64,000 bases of DNA from NCBI GenBank assembly GCA_024691305.1, contig JAILNS010000032.1:1-64000 (forward strand), read 5' to 3'. The translations under genes and the position numbers were made by a program. This DNA comes from Lachnospiraceae bacterium. GTDB taxonomy: Bacteria; Bacillota; Clostridia; Lachnospirales; Lachnospiraceae. The first letter of the stretch is position 1, and the number at the start of each line of letters is the position of its first letter. The notes under the pieces were generated by a model. The model saw nothing but the letters and a program-made list of their open reading frames with translations. It was not told the origin of the DNA and made no database searches. Of the stretch, positions 3,914 through 56,101 are shown piece by piece.

Positions 3914-5990
3914 TCCTTCCTACTGGCAGGATTTTGACAGTGGAAACAGTTTGGAATGGGTCCTTACCGCAGGAAACGGAGCTTATGCCGGGGGATCCTT
4001 GATCGGTGGGCGAAACAGGACTCATCAGGCATATCTTGTAGCTTCGTTAAAAGCTCCGACCAACAGATATGCGGTTCTTGACAACATCACCGAGCATGTG
4101 AGTATAGACGGTACAGACTATGATCTTGAGGCGATACAGCACAAGGGAAAGGTCTGTTCTAAAGGATATAAATATCTTAAAAAAGTAACATATGACGGAA
4201 CGATAAGGTTCGAATACGAACTGAATGCATCCGCAGAGCATGAGTGTGAGTCGGGTGTATGTGCAATGAGCTTAAAAAAGCATATTGCTCTTGTTAAGGG
4301 TGAAAATACCGTTACGATCGATTATGAGATCATAAATTTCTCTGCCGATGAGGCAAAGATCTGTCTTACTCCCAAATTTGATTTCAGAGAACACAATACG
4401 CTTAAGAAAGCCTCAGAGCTTAACTTTAGTTTTATTCTCAAGGATGACACGGTTTCGCTTATTCCTGATGAAAAAGATGATATACGGATAGATTTAAGCA
4501 TAAGCGAAGGCTGTTTTTGGGAACTTGAGGATAAGTATGATAAGGATATAGAGCTGCAGACCGAAGTTGACCTTGAGACCGAGGGGCTGTGCGATTCCTT
4601 CATGCCATACAATATACTTATAGAGGCAGGTCCCGGAGAGTCAAAACATATATCCGTCGTATGCAGCGTGGTAAGCGGTGATAGCGGCCGTTTCGTGGCA
4701 GCAGGCACTGCCCGTAAGCTCATAAACGGGGTAAAAGAGTATTATAAAGATCTTGAGGATCGCGCAGAGACGGCCATGAACGGGACTTTCATAGATCCTT
4801 CGCATAAAGAACTCTTCGACAGGCTTGTTCTGGCGGCCGATCATTTTATCTGTGAGCGCAGATCGACAGGCCTAAAAACCGTACTGGCAGGACTTCCCTG
4901 GTTTACGGACTGGGGCAGGGATACCATGATCGCATTTACCGGGCTCACTCTTTGTACCGTCCGGTTTGATGATGCAAGGGAGATTCTTAAGTCTTTTGCA
5001 TTATATGAAAAAAACGGACTCATACCCAATATGTTTCCCGATGATGGCAAAGAACCGTTATATAACACTGCCGACGCATCATTATGGTTTTTTATAGCGG
5101 TATATAACTGTTTAAGATATGATCCTGACAGCAGGGACTTCATCAGGACCGAAATATATCCGACCCTTCTGCATATCATAACAGCATATGAAAAGGGCAC
5201 GGATAACAGCATTTATATGGAAGAGTCCGGACTCATACATGCGGGCAGCGGACTTGATCAGGTTACATGGATGGATGTGAGGGTCGGAGATCTGGTTGTA
5301 ACCCCAAGACACGGATGTCCCGTAGAGATCAATGCTCTTTGGTATAATGCGCTTAGGATAGCCGTATCCTTGGCGGATATGTTTGGGGATCCGGATACGG
5401 CTAAGCACTGTAATAGTCTTTCGAAGCGTGTTTTGGAAGTATTTGAAAAAACATATTTTAATCCCGAAACAGGATGTTTGTATGATGTTGTAAGCGGATA
5501 TACCAAAGACGGATATACGGACAGGGATCCTTCGATAAGGCCCAATCAGGTATATGCGGTCTCTCTTCCTTTTTCTCCTTTAAGCGAGGAGGCAGCGCTT
5601 TCCGTAGTCAATGTTGTGGAAGAGAGGTTATATGTTGGGGTAGCTATAAGGTCACTTGAACCTTCGCATCCGGACTATCACCCCGAATACAGGGGAGCAC
5701 TAAAAAAAAGGGATATGAGTTATCATCAGGGTACCGCCTGGGGATTTCTTCTCGGTGCCTATATAGAAGCATATTATAAAGTTCATAGCCGGGAAAAAGA
5801 CATAAAAGAGCGCCTGGATAAACTGTTTGAGCCGGTAAGGAAGCATTTGACAGATGAAAACTGTATATGTGGGATCTGTGAGATATTTGAAGGAGCCCCG
5901 CCACATTTAGGGCGGGGCTGCTATACTCAGGCCTGGTCTGTAGGCGAGATATTAAGGGTTTTGTGTGAATATCTTATTGGAAACGAGTAG
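3894..5990 (+). CDS. Glycogen debranching enzyme / amylo-alpha-1,6-glucosidase
   Basis: GDE N-terminal domain plus LPWFTDWGRDTMIAFTGLTL and C-terminal (alpha/alpha)6 motifs; start overlaps the previous CDS by 20 nt. Confidence 0.92.
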   Translation: MAICTYDPSYWQDFDSGNSLEWVLTAGNGAYAGGSLIGGRNRTHQAYLVASLKAPTNRYAVLDNITEHVSIDGTDYDLEAIQHKGKVCSKGYKYLKKVTYDGTIRFEYELNASAEHECESGVCAMSLKKHIALVKGENTVTIDYEIINFSADEAKICLTPKFDFREHNTLKKASELNFSFILKDDTVSLIPDEKDDIRIDLSISEGCFWELEDKYDKDIELQTEVDLETEGLCDSFMPYNILIEAGPGESKHISVVCSVVSGDSGRFVAAGTARKLINGVKEYYKDLEDRAETAMNGTFIDPSHKELFDRLVLAADHFICERRSTGLKTVLAGLPWFTDWGRDTMIAFTGLTLCTVRFDDAREILKSFALYEKNGLIPNMFPDDGKEPLYNTADASLWFFIAVYNCLRYDPDSRDFIRTEIYPTLLHIITAYEKGTDNSIYMEESGLIHAGSGLDQVTWMDVRVGDLVVTPRHGCPVEINALWYNALRIAVSLADMFGDPDTAKHCNSLSKRVLEVFEKTYFNPETGCLYDVVSGYTKDGYTDRDPSIRPNQVYAVSLPFSPLSEEAALSVVNVVEERLYVGVAIRSLEPSHPDYHPEYRGALKKRDMSYHQGTAWGFLLGAYIEAYYKVHSREKDIKERLDKLFEPVRKHLTDENCICGICEIFEGAPPHLGRGCYTQAWSVGEILRVLCEYLIGNE

Positions 5991-7143
5991 GTCCGTCACC
6001 TATGGATACTACATAGAATTCCGGAGTCAGATCGTATTTTTCCTTGTATGCTTTGGTAAGAGTTTCTTTGAAGGCCTCTACCGCATCGTCTTTTACTATA
6101 CTTACGGTGCAGCCTCCGAAGCCGCCGCCGGTTATCCTTGAACCGACCACTCCGTCACAGGACCATGCTGCATCTACCAAAACATCTATCTCGGGACATG
6201 ATACCTCATAATCATCCCTTAATGAAACATGACTTGCGTTCATCAGTTTACCGAAACTGTCAAGATCACCGTCTCTAAGAGCTTGTACGGCTTTGATCGT
6301 GCGCTGGTTTTCATATACTGCATGATGCGCTCTTAAAGCTCTGGTCGGATCTTTTATTGCGGATCTGTATTTTTCAAAATCTTCTTCCGAAAGATCGCCG
6401 AGTGACGTGATGTTTGTAACTGTCTGTAATTCTTCGAGGGCCTTTTCACAGGATGACCGTCTCTCATTATATGCCGAATCAACTAATGAATGCTTAACTT
6501 TACTGTTTGTAACGACTATCTTATATCCGTTTAAAACGATGGGGGCATAGTCGTAATTTAATGTGTTACAGTCAAGGAAGATCGCATTATCTTTTTTGCC
6601 CATTGCGGAAGCAAACTGATCCATGATACCGCAGTTCATTCCGTTATAGTTGTTCTCGCTGTACTGGCCGATCGTCGCAAGGTCCACATTGGTCACTTCG
6701 TCGAGCTTAAAAAGGTCGCGGAGCATGAAACCTGTAAGTACCTCTAAAGAAGCTGACGAGGAAAGCCCGCTTCCTGCGGGGATATCTCCGGTTATGACCA
6801 TGTCAAAGCCGGTATCTATTTTGAGTCCGCGTCCGATAAATGCCCAGACAACACCCTTGGGATAGTTGGTCCATCCGGCTTCTTCGGAAGGATTAAGGTC
6901 ATCCAGGGAGGTTTCATATACTCCTTTGAGCGACTGGTTGATAGAGAAAAAGCGGATCACTCTGTCATCGCGTTTTCTTGCGGCTGCGTAGGTTCCGATA
7001 GTGAGTGCACAGGGAAAAACATGTCCACCGTTATAATCCGTATGCTCTCCTATCAGATTTACGCGTCCCGGAGCAAAGTAGGTACGGATATCGCCTTCTG
7101 CTCCGAATAATTCTATGAATTTGTCATATACACTTTTTTGCAT
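5974..7143 (-). CDS. galK: Galactokinase
   Basis: GRVNLIGEHTDYNGGHVFPCAL, PAGSGLSSSASLE and GGGFGGCT motifs. Confidence 0.97.
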   Translation of the reverse strand: MQKSVYDKFIELFGAEGDIRTYFAPGRVNLIGEHTDYNGGHVFPCALTIGTYAAARKRDDRVIRFFSINQSLKGVYETSLDDLNPSEEAGWTNYPKGVVWAFIGRGLKIDTGFDMVITGDIPAGSGLSSSASLEVLTGFMLRDLFKLDEVTNVDLATIGQYSENNYNGMNCGIMDQFASAMGKKDNAIFLDCNTLNYDYAPIVLNGYKIVVTNSKVKHSLVDSAYNERRSSCEKALEELQTVTNITSLGDLSEEDFEKYRSAIKDPTRALRAHHAVYENQRTIKAVQALRDGDLDSFGKLMNASHVSLRDDYEVSCPEIDVLVDAAWSCDGVVGSRITGGGFGGCTVSIVKDDAVEAFKETLTKAYKEKYDLTPEFYVVSIGDGPTRFQ

Positions 7144-7186: not shown

Positions 7187-7321
7187 GGGTGTGCCGGATA
7201 TCATTCTTAGCAGGCACGCTTGCGCTGCACACGCCTCGCAGCGGATGCCGGGCTCGAAAATACCTCGCCGGGCACCGGCGGGCGTGAAAGCACCTGCTTA
7301 AGAATATTATCCGGCACACCC
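7187..7321. repeat. Structured palindromic intergenic element, copy 1
   Basis: Perfect 14-bp terminal inverted repeat GGGTGTGCCGGATA (7187-7200)/TATCCGGCACACCC (7308-7321), continuing imperfectly to GCAGG/CCTGC. The ~90-nt core is shared with 36979-37106. Confidence 0.85.
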
Positions 7322-7365: not shown

Positions 7366-8013
7366 ATGAGAATAACAAAAAAGGATATAGAAACAAGGCT
7401 TCCGAAGATACTTGAGAGGCTGGATGAAAAATACGGCACAGAGTATGTCTGCTATCTGACGCATGAAAATGCATGGCAGCTTCTTATAGCCACGATATTG
7501 TCAGCTCAGTGCACGGATGCGAGGGTAAATATCGTAACAAAGGATCTGTATGTGAAATATCCTACGGTACAGGCTTTTGCACAAGCTAATCTTAAGGAAC
7601 TTGAACAGGATATCCATTCCACCGGGTTTTATCACAACAAGGCCAAAAATATCATCGCATGCTGTAAAAAACTCATGGAAGACTACGGCGGAGAGGTCCC
7701 ATCTGATCTAGATGAACTCACTAAACTACCAGGAGTCGGGCGAAAGACCGCAAATGTTATCAGGGGGAATATATACAATATACCAAGCATAGTTGTGGAT
7801 ACACATGTAAAAAGGATATCCCGTAAACTCGGTCTTACGAACAACGAGGACCCGGTTAAGATAGAGTATGATCTTATGAAGATACTGCCTAAGGATCACT
7901 GGATAACATGGAATATTCATATAATCACTCTGGGACGTACGATATGCAAGGCTCCTACGCCTAAATGCGATGAATGTTTTTTGCGGGACATCTGTCCTTC
8001 GTGTTATAATTAA
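7366..8013 (+). CDS. nth: Endonuclease III
   Basis: HhH motif LPGVGRKTANVI, VDTHVKRISRKLGL, C-terminal 4Fe-4S cysteines CkaPTPKCDECFLRDIC. Confidence 0.97.
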   Translation: MRITKKDIETRLPKILERLDEKYGTEYVCYLTHENAWQLLIATILSAQCTDARVNIVTKDLYVKYPTVQAFAQANLKELEQDIHSTGFYHNKAKNIIACCKKLMEDYGGEVPSDLDELTKLPGVGRKTANVIRGNIYNIPSIVVDTHVKRISRKLGLTNNEDPVKIEYDLMKILPKDHWITWNIHIITLGRTICKAPTPKCDECFLRDICPSCYN

Positions 8014-36978: not shown

Positions 36979-37106
36979 GGCTCACGACAACATTCAACGC
37001 AGGCACGCTTTCGCTACTCTCACCTCGCAGCGGCACTATGCTCGAAAAGACCTCGCTTAGTGCCGGCGGGTTCAAAGTACCTGCTTATGAATCGTTATCG
37101 TGAGCC
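36979..37106. repeat. Structured palindromic intergenic element, copy 2
   Basis: GGCTCACGACAAC…ATTCA..GCAGG (36979-37003) pairs with CCTGC…TGAAT..GTTATCGTGAGCC (37080-37106). The core aligns with copy 1 (GCAGGCACGCTTnCGCT, CCTCGCAGCGG, GCTCGAAAAnACCTCGC, CCGGCGGG, CCTGCTTA). Confidence 0.85.
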
Positions 37107-53225: not shown

Positions 53226-55271
53226 ATGGATATGAGAAATATTAAAAAAACCGTATCGATGATCTTAATATGTATATTTGTCGTTTGCTCATCCGCCGGG
53301 TGCGGAGCTTCGGGTGCATCGATATTCATGAAAGACGGTTCCATCGTAAATATCGGTAATACCGATCCGCAGGCCGAAGGAACAGACGGGACCGATAAGA
53401 GTGCGGATACCACTGCAGGAACCGACGGACAAAATGGGGAGACCGGTTCTGATTCCGGCTCAGAAGGCGGTTTGGGACATTATACCTATGAGGGTGAATA
53501 TGATCCCAGTGCAGATCCTTATATCACAGGCGGTGGTACATCTCCTTTTTACAATCCGGACGGTACAACTACGGCGGGAACTGCAACAGATCCAAACGGA
53601 CAGGATGCGGCTTCATTAACATCCGGAGATGGGGCTTCTACGGGAACTTCGGGCACACAGAATCCTTCAGGTACGCAGAGCCCTTCAAGTGGACAGACTT
53701 CTTCGGGAAGTAATTCAAATGCTTCCGAACCGAGAGAAACCGCTGATCTTGGAGGAACTGCCGTAGAACTTATAGATAATGCCACGGACGCACTTACAAG
53801 TGCCGTCCAGCGCAAGAACACCGACCTGTACGTTGCGACCACAGGAAATGATGATACAAATGACGGTTCGTATGACAGCCCGTATTTTACGATACAAAAA
53901 GCATTGGATACCGTAATGCCCGGAAATACCATCTATATATTGAGCGGTGTTTATAAGGGGGCTAACACGGCGTCCATCTCCGGAACTGCAGAGGCTCCTA
54001 TAAATATAACGGCATATCCCTCCGCATCCGTTACGGTATCTTTGGGAACCGGAGAGCGCGGGGCTGTATTTGATCTGAATGGTCAGTCCTATATAAATAT
54101 AAGCGGTATACGTATCGGTAATTCATATGCGACATGGGTTTACGGAGTATTCATGGATGCGGGGACCCATGACATAAATATCACCGGATGTGAGTTTTGC
54201 AACATGTCATGTACGGCAACTCCCGGAAATGGCGGAGCATATGCGGTTTTAGCCTACGGAAACGGAAATACCGAGGATAAAGCCGTCAAAAATATAAATG
54301 TATATAACAATAAGGTCCATAACATGAATACCGGATACAGCGAGGCACTGGCTGCATCGGGAAATGTAAGTGATGTTAAGTTTACCGGAAACATCGTTTA
54401 CCAGATCTCCAATATAGGTATCGATCTGTACGGCGGTGGCGGGTACTGCTCCGATCAGGATCTGGACAGACCGAGGAACTGTGAGATATCCGGAAATACC
54501 GTATATCAGTGTGTATGTCCCTACTGGTCCTGTGCCGGGATATATGTTTCCAATGCGCATGACTGCGTGGTCAAGGAAAACTTTTCATATGAGAATTCAT
54601 ATGGTATAGAAGTTGCGGCCGAAAACAATCATTATCTGTATCCCACAACGAAGATCTCCGTTACCGACAATACCGTTCATGATAACACCGACGGAGGTAT
54701 CACGATAGGCGGTGTGGATGCGGTCAATTCCGGTTTTGTTACCGACAGTTCGGTTACGGGGAATATCCTGTATAACAATGGGTATTACACTAATGACGGG
54801 GCAAACGGTGAACTCCATTTCGAGAAATGTGATGGCATAACCGTTACCGGCAATACCGTAAGAAATCATGATTATTCATATCCCGTCATCGGATGCGGCA
54901 AGACCAGTGAATACGTTAAAAACGTGAAATTTAACGACAATATGTATGCATACGATAAGCCTGCGAAGATCGTGTTTAAATTCCAGGGCAATGATTATGT
55001 GGGTCTTGATGCCTGGAATAAGTTCACGGGCGGAAAAGACAAGAGCCTCGGAGACAGCAGTAATACCGGCGGTACGAACGGAACTAACGGAACGACAGGT
55101 ACAACAGGAACCACCGGTACAACAGGAACCACGGGCACAACCGGAACTACCGGCACACCAGGAACCACCGGAACAACAGGAACGACAGGTACAACAGGAA
55201 CCACAGGAACGACAGGTACAACCGGTACAACGGGAACGACAGGCACAACCGGCACGACAACCACGAATTAA
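53226..55271 (+). CDS. Right-handed parallel beta-helix lipoprotein with C-terminal collagen-like (Gly-Thr-Thr)n tail
   Basis: Signal peptide and lipobox (VVCSSAGC); DLYVATTGNDDTNDGSYDSPYFTIQKALDTVMPGNTIYILSGVY (DUF1565-like); repeated GNTVY/DNTVH beta-helix rungs. Confidence 0.88.
   Translation: MDMRNIKKTVSMILICIFVVCSSAGCGASGASIFMKDGSIVNIGNTDPQAEGTDGTDKSADTTAGTDGQNGETGSDSGSEGGLGHYTYEGEYDPSADPYITGGGTSPFYNPDGTTTAGTATDPNGQDAASLTSGDGASTGTSGTQNPSGTQSPSSGQTSSGSNSNASEPRETADLGGTAVELIDNATDALTSAVQRKNTDLYVATTGNDDTNDGSYDSPYFTIQKALDTVMPGNTIYILSGVYKGANTASISGTAEAPINITAYPSASVTVSLGTGERGAVFDLNGQSYINISGIRIGNSYATWVYGVFMDAGTHDINITGCEFCNMSCTATPGNGGAYAVLAYGNGNTEDKAVKNINVYNNKVHNMNTGYSEALAASGNVSDVKFTGNIVYQISNIGIDLYGGGGYCSDQDLDRPRNCEISGNTVYQCVCPYWSCAGIYVSNAHDCVVKENFSYENSYGIEVAAENNHYLYPTTKISVTDNTVHDNTDGGITIGGVDAVNSGFVTDSSVTGNILYNNGYYTNDGANGELHFEKCDGITVTGNTVRNHDYSYPVIGCGKTSEYVKNVKFNDNMYAYDKPAKIVFKFQGNDYVGLDAWNKFTGGKDKSLGDSSNTGGTNGTNGTTGTTGTTGTTGTTGTTGTTGTPGTTGTTGTTGTTGTTGTTGTTGTTGTTGTTGTTTTN
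55071..55259 (+). repeat. Tandem 9-nt repeat encoding 21 Gly-X-Y triplets (GTN x2, GTT x18, GTP x1)
   Basis: Direct reading of codons from ggt-acg-aac at 55071 to ggc-acg-aca at 55259. Confidence 0.95.
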
Positions 55272-56101
55272 TGGAAACCATTGAACTTAAGTATTCCGGA
55301 ACAAACACATATCTTATAAAAGGTGAGAAAGGCCTGATCCTGTTTGATACGGGTTGGGCCGGAACTCTTCCCGCTTTTTGCAGGGCATTGGGAGATGTAA
55401 ATGTGCGGGTTCAGGATATAGATCATATCATCATCTCTCATTTTCATCCCGATCATATGGGTATAGCACAGGATATAGCAGATCTTGGTCCGTCTGTCGT
55501 GATAGCAGATATCCAGAGTAAATATATTCATTCTTCCGATCATATTTTTGAAAAAGACAAGACGACCCGCTTCAAGCCCATAAAAGATGAAAACATCATA
55601 TGTATTTCGATAGACGAAAGCAGATCTTTTCTTGAAAAACTGGGGATATACGGTGAACTGATATATACGCCCGGACACAGTGATGACAGCATTTCACTGT
55701 GGCTTGATGAAGGTTCTCTTTTCGTCGGGGATCTAAATCCTCTGTATGAACTTGAACTTCATAAGGGGACACGGACAGGCGCAAGCTGGGATAGGCTTCT
55801 AAAGCTTAATCCGGGTACTGTATATTACGGACATGCGCTTACGGCACATTTAAAAGGGCCGGATGATCCCGTCCCCTTAAAGTCTGATGACGCATCGTCT
55901 GCAGATGATCCATCCCGTGACATATTCTTACTTGTTGAAAAAATAATGAAATTCTCTGACAAAGGGTATTCCCTTGATAAGATTCAAAAAAAGACAGGGG
56001 CAGACCGGGGCTTTATCGAGGATGTGATAAGAATGTATCTTACTCATCAAAATGTCGGGGTCCGGGGAATACTCGACAGGATTGAGATCAAGAACAGATA
56101 A
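55271..56101 (+). CDS. MBL-fold metallohydrolase
   Basis: HIIISHFHPDHMG, TPGHSDDSISLWL, FVGDL; TAATG overlap with upstream gene. Confidence 0.92.
   Translation: METIELKYSGTNTYLIKGEKGLILFDTGWAGTLPAFCRALGDVNVRVQDIDHIIISHFHPDHMGIAQDIADLGPSVVIADIQSKYIHSSDHIFEKDKTTRFKPIKDENIICISIDESRSFLEKLGIYGELIYTPGHSDDSISLWLDEGSLFVGDLNPLYELELHKGTRTGASWDRLLKLNPGTVYYGHALTAHLKGPDDPVPLKSDDASSADDPSRDIFLLVEKIMKFSDKGYSLDKIQKKTGADRGFIEDVIRMYLTHQNVGVRGILDRIEIKNR

What the first reader, a model, noticed from the sequence alone, without database searches (positions are those of the whole stretch)
7187..7321. Structured palindromic element, copy 1: 135-nt near-complete hairpin between galK and nth
The intergenic DNA folds almost end to end. 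P1 is a perfect 14-bp stem (GGGTGTGCCGGATA/TATCCGGCACACCC) continuing as ATTCTTA..GCAGG / CCTGC..TAAGAAT. Inside it, TGC..CACGCC pairs with GGCGTG..GCA (P2). Next, CGG.TGCC pairs with GGCA.CCG (P3), closing a loop GCTCGAAAATACCTCGC. This is far more structure than a terminator needs. It lacks a T-tract and lies between two divergent gene starts, so it is not a 3'-end terminator of either gene. It belongs to no feature class I recognise.
Basis: seen in the sequence. Interest (0 to 1): 0.85.

Follow-up and report, generated by a model that had tools for sequence, protein, structure and literature searches.

The report
Flipping palindromic DNA repeat, gut Lachnospiraceae
The hairpin is one copy of an apparently undescribed, repeated DNA element in the gut-bacterial family Lachnospiraceae that has a shared 90-base core inside long mirror-image arms; the arms differ at nearly every site yet always match each other, and the core can be found flipped between related species.

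Summary
The hairpin is real: 21 of 23 arm bases pair, fold z-score -7.7. It is one of 10 copies in this genome (second window copy at 36979-37106). It occurs in all 7 species of the genus, patchily across Lachnospiraceae, and in none of about 190 sampled genomes from other Clostridia families. It is not in Rfam.

The anatomy reverses that of an ordinary MITE: a conserved core (mini-hairpin, AG bulge, A.A mismatch, CTCGAAAATACCTCG loop region, strong covariation) sits between long arms that differ at each locus but match each other.

Between related genomes four things happen. The core flips in place (flanks 91-97% identical). Both arms can change together while core and flanks stay. Whole palindromes are present or absent. 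Cores become alike within a species.

Pairing is almost wholly Watson-Crick, arm G.T no commoner than A.C, and core orientation ignores transcription. So this looks like a DNA element, not an RNA or a terminator.

Most likely it is a REP/MITE-like palindromic repeat folding as single-stranded DNA. Template switching between arms (a known process) would keep arms matched and flip the core. The mobilising or binding protein is unknown; no Y1 (RAYT-type) transposase was detected in this genome.

The parts
7187..7321 (+). Whole palindromic element, copy 1 (between divergent ORFs read as galK and nth)
7187..7209 (+). Left arm, unique to this locus
   Evidence: 21/23 complementary to right arm; matches only itself and its partner in this genome
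7299..7321 (+). Right arm, complement of the left arm
7210..7298 (+). Conserved core, shared with 9 other copies in the genome (95% identical to the closest in the aligned core)
7218..7225 (+). Mini-hairpin GC-TTGC-GC, conserved with C-G to T-A covariation
7237..7280 (+). Apical hairpin: CGC-AG(bulge)-CGG-A-TGCC..., conserved AG bulge, position of the family's A.A mismatch, strong covariation
7253..7267 (+). Near-invariant loop region CTCGAAAATACCTCG, the family signature
36979..37106 (+). Second copy in the window: arms 36979-36996 and 37088-37106, core 36997-37087, loop 37041-37055
   Evidence: (109 bits, E 3.7e-26)

Best explanation
A chromosomal, REP/MITE-like interspersed palindromic DNA element of Lachnospiraceae. 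Shown: a conserved about 90-nt structured core is flanked by long near-perfect inverted arms that are specific to each locus; the element is intergenic and orientation-blind; elements sit at orthologous sites across species; whole palindromes (both arms plus core) are present or absent between close genomes; the core is inverted in place between close genomes; both arms can change together; cores are more alike within a species than between orthologous sites. Inferred: the element works as folded single-stranded DNA (or a cruciform) exposed during replication; polymerase template switching, or recombination, between the arms copies one arm onto the other, keeps them complementary while they drift or are replaced, and flips the core; cores are homogenised between loci by gene conversion or occasional re-insertion; the conserved loop, AG bulge, A.A mismatch and mini-hairpin are the binding site of an unidentified protein that spreads the element or uses it. 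No host benefit has been shown.
For: Copies: 10 in own genome, 3-14 in each of 7 genus genomes; 25 of 150 family genomes carry the exact loop; model R1 hits 5 of 6 same-family and none of about 190 other Clostridia genomes. Covariation: 93.3% of cells paired against 74.1% shuffled, 223 two-sided changes against 68, covariation score 0.555 against 0.200, slid structures at or below 45%. DNA-like pairing: arm mismatches G.T 96 and A.C 96; on the transcribed strand 64 and 61. Orientation: 25 co-directional, 27 opposed; 3 of about 77 copies inside an ORF call, the rest intergenic. Orthologous sites. In-place inversion: L194/L198 at 96-97% and L189/L190 at 91% flank identity, arms unmoved and core reversed; also L001/L023, L002/L010, L007/L033, L020/L034. 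Empty sites: L192/L213, L271/L297, L267/L288. Arm replacement: between G195 and G350 the core is 98.3% identical, five of eight loci keep arms at about 91-100%, three have both arms changed together. Concerted evolution: L001 core 95% to a paralogue, 77% to its orthologue L023. Published mechanism: template switching between inverted-repeat arms causes arm homogenisation and spacer inversion (PMC8604942).
Against: No inversion was seen in eight orthologous pairs of another genus, G195/G350, so flipping is not constant, and at least one genome in the clearest inverted pairs is a metagenome assembly. Published spacer inversions concern spacers of a few bases, not about 90. Block replacement of both arms needs a source for the new sequence, and none was found in the same genomes. 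No mobilising protein was identified: Y1 transposase was not detected in this genome and not linked to the motif elsewhere; the one motif near a Y1 gene (L164) looked incidental. No biochemical evidence of DNA folding or protein binding. In the apical stem of the core alone the G.T to A.C comparison is 37 to 15 in all and only 19 to 14 in distinct cases, which does not exclude some RNA-level constraint.
Confidence: 0.6

Rival explanations
1. Active non-autonomous mobile element moved by a hairpin-binding HUH (Y1, RAYT-like) or other single-strand transposase, i.e. a REP/REPIN-type MITE; persistence at orthologous sites is incidental.
For: Hairpin with conserved mismatch and loop resembles REP hairpins; identical copies with the same arms but different flanks 724 bp apart (L002/L003); empty sites; related two-hairpin versions in direct tandem.
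Against: No Y1 in own genome and one partial in the genus; in 12 element-bearing genomes Y1 genes are not flanked by the motif; no conserved ends or tags; many shared orthologous sites.
Confidence: 0.15
2. Structured non-coding RNA or cis-regulatory leader acting on neighbouring transcripts.
For: Strong covariation, very low folding energy, location close upstream of genes such as nth.
Against: Orientation random to transcription and flipped between species; arm G.T equals A.C; no Rfam match; no specific recurring neighbouring gene found.
Confidence: 0.1
3. Site-specific invertible switch (inverton) flipped by a recombinase to control neighbouring genes.
For: In-place inversion with arms fixed; flanking inverted repeats; intergenic.
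Against: Invertases bind motifs within the inverted repeats (PMC11892184), but here the repeats differ at nearly every locus and the only shared end motif, the mini-hairpin, is on one side; eight pairs show no inversion.
Confidence: 0.08
4. The core inserted into pre-existing hairpins such as intrinsic terminators, or the arms are inverted target duplications.
For: A few copies have a T-run outside the arms (5 of 81, against 5 of 243 control positions).
Against: Empty sites contain neither arm (L213, L297, L288); L002/L003 share arms but not flanks; 94% have no T-run.
Confidence: 0.04

Closest known systems
REP / REPIN elements (GTAG- and CGTC-tagged palindromic repeats, PMC3733652; REPINs, PMC3116915)
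   Same: Interspersed, palindromic, structure-conserved; CGTC REPs likewise lack a known dedicated transposase
   Different: REPs are 20-40 bp with a tetranucleotide tag at one end and stems shared within a family; here about 110-250 bp, no universal tag, arms unique per locus. A text search of the 2013 REP survey finds no mention of Clostridia or Firmicutes
MITEs
   Same: Short, non-coding, inverted repeats at the ends, present or absent as a unit
   Different: In MITEs the ends are conserved and recognised by the transposase; here the ends are unique and the middle is conserved
Quasipalindromes and spacer-inversion sites made by template switching (PMC8604942, PMC7202029)
   Same: Arm homogenisation and inversion of the spacer
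   Different: Those are chance sequences with spacers of a few bases; this is a repeated family with a conserved 90-nt core
Invertons / invertible promoters (PMC11892184)
   Same: DNA between inverted repeats found in both orientations, gut bacteria
   Different: No shared recombination site, arms differ at nearly every locus, switching within a culture not shown
Integron attC sites and other folded single-strand recombination sites (from general knowledge)
   Same: Function of the folded strand rather than the duplex sequence is proposed here too
   Different: attC has conserved ends and a variable middle and lies in cassette arrays with an integrase; the reverse here

Membership tests
REP / REPIN (RAYT-mobilised) | Short (20-40 bp) palindrome with GTAG or CGTC tag at one end | tested here: not met
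   Elements of 128-135 bp in the window and up to about 250 bp elsewhere; no tag shared by all copies. CGTC occurs next to the core in one subfamily only
REP / REPIN (RAYT-mobilised) | Associated Y1 tyrosine transposase flanked by the repeat | tested here: not met
   PF01797 not found in own genome, one partial match in the genus; Y1 loci in 12 element-bearing genomes not flanked by the motif. Own genome is 92.7% complete
MITE | Terminal inverted repeats conserved between copies | tested here: not met
   Arms unrelated between most copies of one genome and unique in it; exceptions are L002/L003 and subfamilies with partly shared arms
MITE | Present/absent polymorphism as one unit | tested here: met
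   L192/L213, L271/L297, L267/L288
MITE | Target-site duplication | tested here: inconclusive
   Junctions too diverged to call one
Inverton | Flanking inverted repeats with DNA found in both orientations | tested here: met
   Between species, not within a culture
Inverton | Shared recombinase motif in the inverted repeats | tested here: not met
   Arms locus-specific
Inverton | Recombinase-driven switching in a population | not testable with these tools
   Needs reads from clonal cultures
Rfam RNA families | Score above a family's gathering cut-off | tested here: not met
   No match in the window; best sub-threshold 14.8 bits
Intrinsic terminator | Stem followed by T-tract at a gene's 3' end | tested here: not met
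   No T-tract here; 5 of 81 copies overall; this copy lies between two gene starts

The most novel reading that the evidence does not exclude
A new class of genome-resident DNA structure: a conserved single-stranded DNA hairpin core, recognised by an unknown host or element protein, that keeps its place for long evolutionary times while its arms are repeatedly re-made as matched pairs, its orientation flips, and its core sequence is copied between loci.
Probability: 0.25. Interest if true: 0.8.

Novelty: new variant of a known kind. Interest (0 to 1): 0.6.

Why it matters
It is a recurrent but apparently undescribed repeat family in a major family of gut bacteria. Its conserved middle with unique, co-evolving arms is the opposite of the usual bacterial small repeat. 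It gives a natural record, over many loci and species, of arm homogenisation, matched arm replacement and spacer inversion in palindromes, processes so far studied mostly in reporters and in short chance palindromes. Because it flips and can lie in promoter regions it may also mislead assemblies, inverton surveys and RNA-motif searches.

Tried and rejected
Rfam at both thresholds: nothing. Phage, plasmid and viral collections: no convincing match, so not a phage or plasmid passenger at that sensitivity. Y1 transposase as carrier: not linked; L164 holds an IS200/IS605-like gene with its own hairpins. Search for a recurring neighbouring protein: clusters found were not close to the motif in a consistent way; inconclusive. 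Pre-existing hairpin or inverted target duplication as origin of the arms: contradicted by empty sites. Arms as guides copied from elsewhere in the genome: no second match. Terminator: 5 of 81 with a T-run. RNA-level selection on arms: G.U not above A.C, even oriented by transcription. Literature searches for a named family in Lachnospiraceae or Butyrivibrio gave nothing relevant; the library lacks most subscription papers.

Full report
OBSERVATION. The sequence at 7187-7321 is as described. The arms 7187-7209 and 7299-7321 pair at 21 of 23 positions; it is the only such inverted repeat (gap 70-140 nt) in the window and 20 shuffles gave none. Both strands fold far better than shuffles (z -7.7 and -7.3). 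The neighbours are ORFs starting at 7143 on the minus strand and at 7366 on the plus strand.

IT IS A REPEAT FAMILY. DNA search finds 8 copies in the assembly and a covariance model 10, two of them in this window (7197-7311 at 99 bits, 36986-37098 at 109 bits). All seven genomes of the genus have 3-14 matches. The exact loop CTCGAAAANACCTCG occurs in 25 of 150 sampled family genomes, against scattered single hits for the reversed control pattern. In 196 Clostridia genomes only same-family genomes matched, 5 of 6, and none of about 190 others. It was not found in phage, plasmid or viral collections at the sensitivity used.

ANATOMY. Alignment of 45 diverse cores gives: arms (P1) reaching to the core; a 2-bp mini-hairpin GC-TNNC-GC; a junction; a long apical hairpin with a conserved AG bulge, a conserved A.A mismatch and the loop region CTCGAAAATACCTCG. 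Named pairs are formed in 93.3% of cells against 74.1% in shuffles and at most 45% in slid structures; two-sided changes are 223 against 68. One-sided (wobble) changes are nearly absent, 10 cells. In another genus (G195, G350) the loop is about TAAAAAACA on an inner stem that also varies by locus, with the same mini-hairpin and lower stem. Shorter relatives made of one or two tandem hairpins with the same loop occur in Butyrivibrio and others.

THE ARMS. In each copy the arms are near-perfect complements (median about 32 nt, up to about 70) but unrelated between most copies of the same genome, even where cores are 90-97% identical. The arms tested match nothing significant in their genome except their partner and, for L002, its twin copy L003. 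Arm mismatches are 96 G.T and 96 A.C; on the transcribed strand of tandem gene pairs 64 and 61. An RNA stem would favour G.U over A.C. Core orientation is 25 with and 27 against transcription, and nearly all copies are intergenic (three fall in short ORF calls). These facts point to DNA, not RNA.

HISTORY. Many copies are at orthologous positions across species, so they are old. Yet the L001 core is 95% identical to a paralogue and 77% to its orthologue L023: cores become alike within a genome. In the closest pair of genomes with the window-type core, G019 and G020, two of three shared sites have the core exactly reversed between unmoved arms (L194/L198 with 96-97% identical flanks; L189/L190 with 91%), and one tandem pair is unchanged. 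Four of the more distant orthologous pairs are reversed too, while L005/L028 is not. In G195/G350 all eight shared copies keep orientation; there the core is 98.3% identical and arms average 81-82%: five loci keep arms at about 91-100%, three have both arms changed together. L272/L284 also has a more diverged core, so replacement of the whole element at one site is possible there; in L273/L283 the core is identical and only the outer parts of both arms changed. In L268/L278 the outer arms of one copy no longer pair well. Sites filled in one genome and empty in the other lack both arms (L192/L213, L271/L297, L267/L288), so the arms come and go with the core; whether these are insertions or deletions is not settled. 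One copy is partly deleted between short repeats (L277/L296).

MECHANISM. Template switching between inverted-repeat arms is known to homogenise arms and to invert the spacer (PMC8604942). Applied to a hairpin exposed on single-stranded DNA it explains matched arms, two-sided changes without G.U intermediates, matched block changes and flipping. It does not by itself explain the conserved core, its spread, or the source of new arm sequence. For the core I infer protein recognition, because the loop, AG bulge and A.A mismatch are the invariant parts while stems covary, as in REP hairpins read by a hairpin-binding transposase. No such protein was found: PF01797 is not detected in this genome (92.7% complete) and not linked to the element elsewhere.

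COMPARISON. It works like a REP/MITE-type palindromic repeat but fails their defining tests (tag, RAYT, conserved ends). It looks like an inverton but has no shared recombination site. It is not a terminator (5 of 81 with a T-run) and matches no Rfam RNA. CGTC REPs are a precedent for repeats without a known dedicated transposase (PMC3733652).

CAVEATS. Several genomes are metagenome assemblies; arms of about 24 nt are shorter than usual assembly k-mers, so inversion by misassembly is unlikely but not excluded. Gene calls are mechanical ORFs. Mobility, protein binding, DNA folding in vivo and any effect on genes are untested. The literature library is partial, so an existing name for this family cannot be excluded.

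Noticed in passing
window 36979-37106: Second copy of the same element, with different arms (GGCTCACGACAACATTCA / TGAATCGTTATCGTGAGCC).
   Followed up: yes
L043, L049, L064, L067, L088, L092, L121, L130, L131 (Robinsoniella-type genomes): Subfamily with arms of 50-75 bp whose outer and inner parts are shared between copies while a middle stretch of about 11 bp differs yet nearly always pairs.
   Followed up: partly
L063, L071, L078, L098, L106, L115, L116, L129: Small elements of one or two tandem hairpins with the same loop and A.A mismatch, in direct orientation, possibly a simpler ancestor or a mobile relative.
   Followed up: partly
L074, around position 5354 counted on the reverse strand: Tandem array of element units (GGCACATAACGGACGCTAAGCTC...).
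   Followed up: no
L069 726-887: Clostridiales-1 RNA (RF01699) lies about 100-150 nt from a copy of the element; probably chance (one case in 18 loci).
   Followed up: no
G000 contig C28 20-83 kb: Six of the ten copies of the genome lie on this one 171-kb contig; two are identical with identical arms, 724 bp apart.
   Followed up: no
window 55053-55277: Nine-base tandem repeat (GGNACNACN) in a coding-like stretch, probably a Gly-Thr-Thr-rich protein tail.
   Followed up: no
L198 600-860: Several tandem copies of a short repeat (TACTGCTTTGCACAAATACTCATTAAACC...) next to the inverted element in G020, expanded relative to the sister genome (L194).
   Followed up: no
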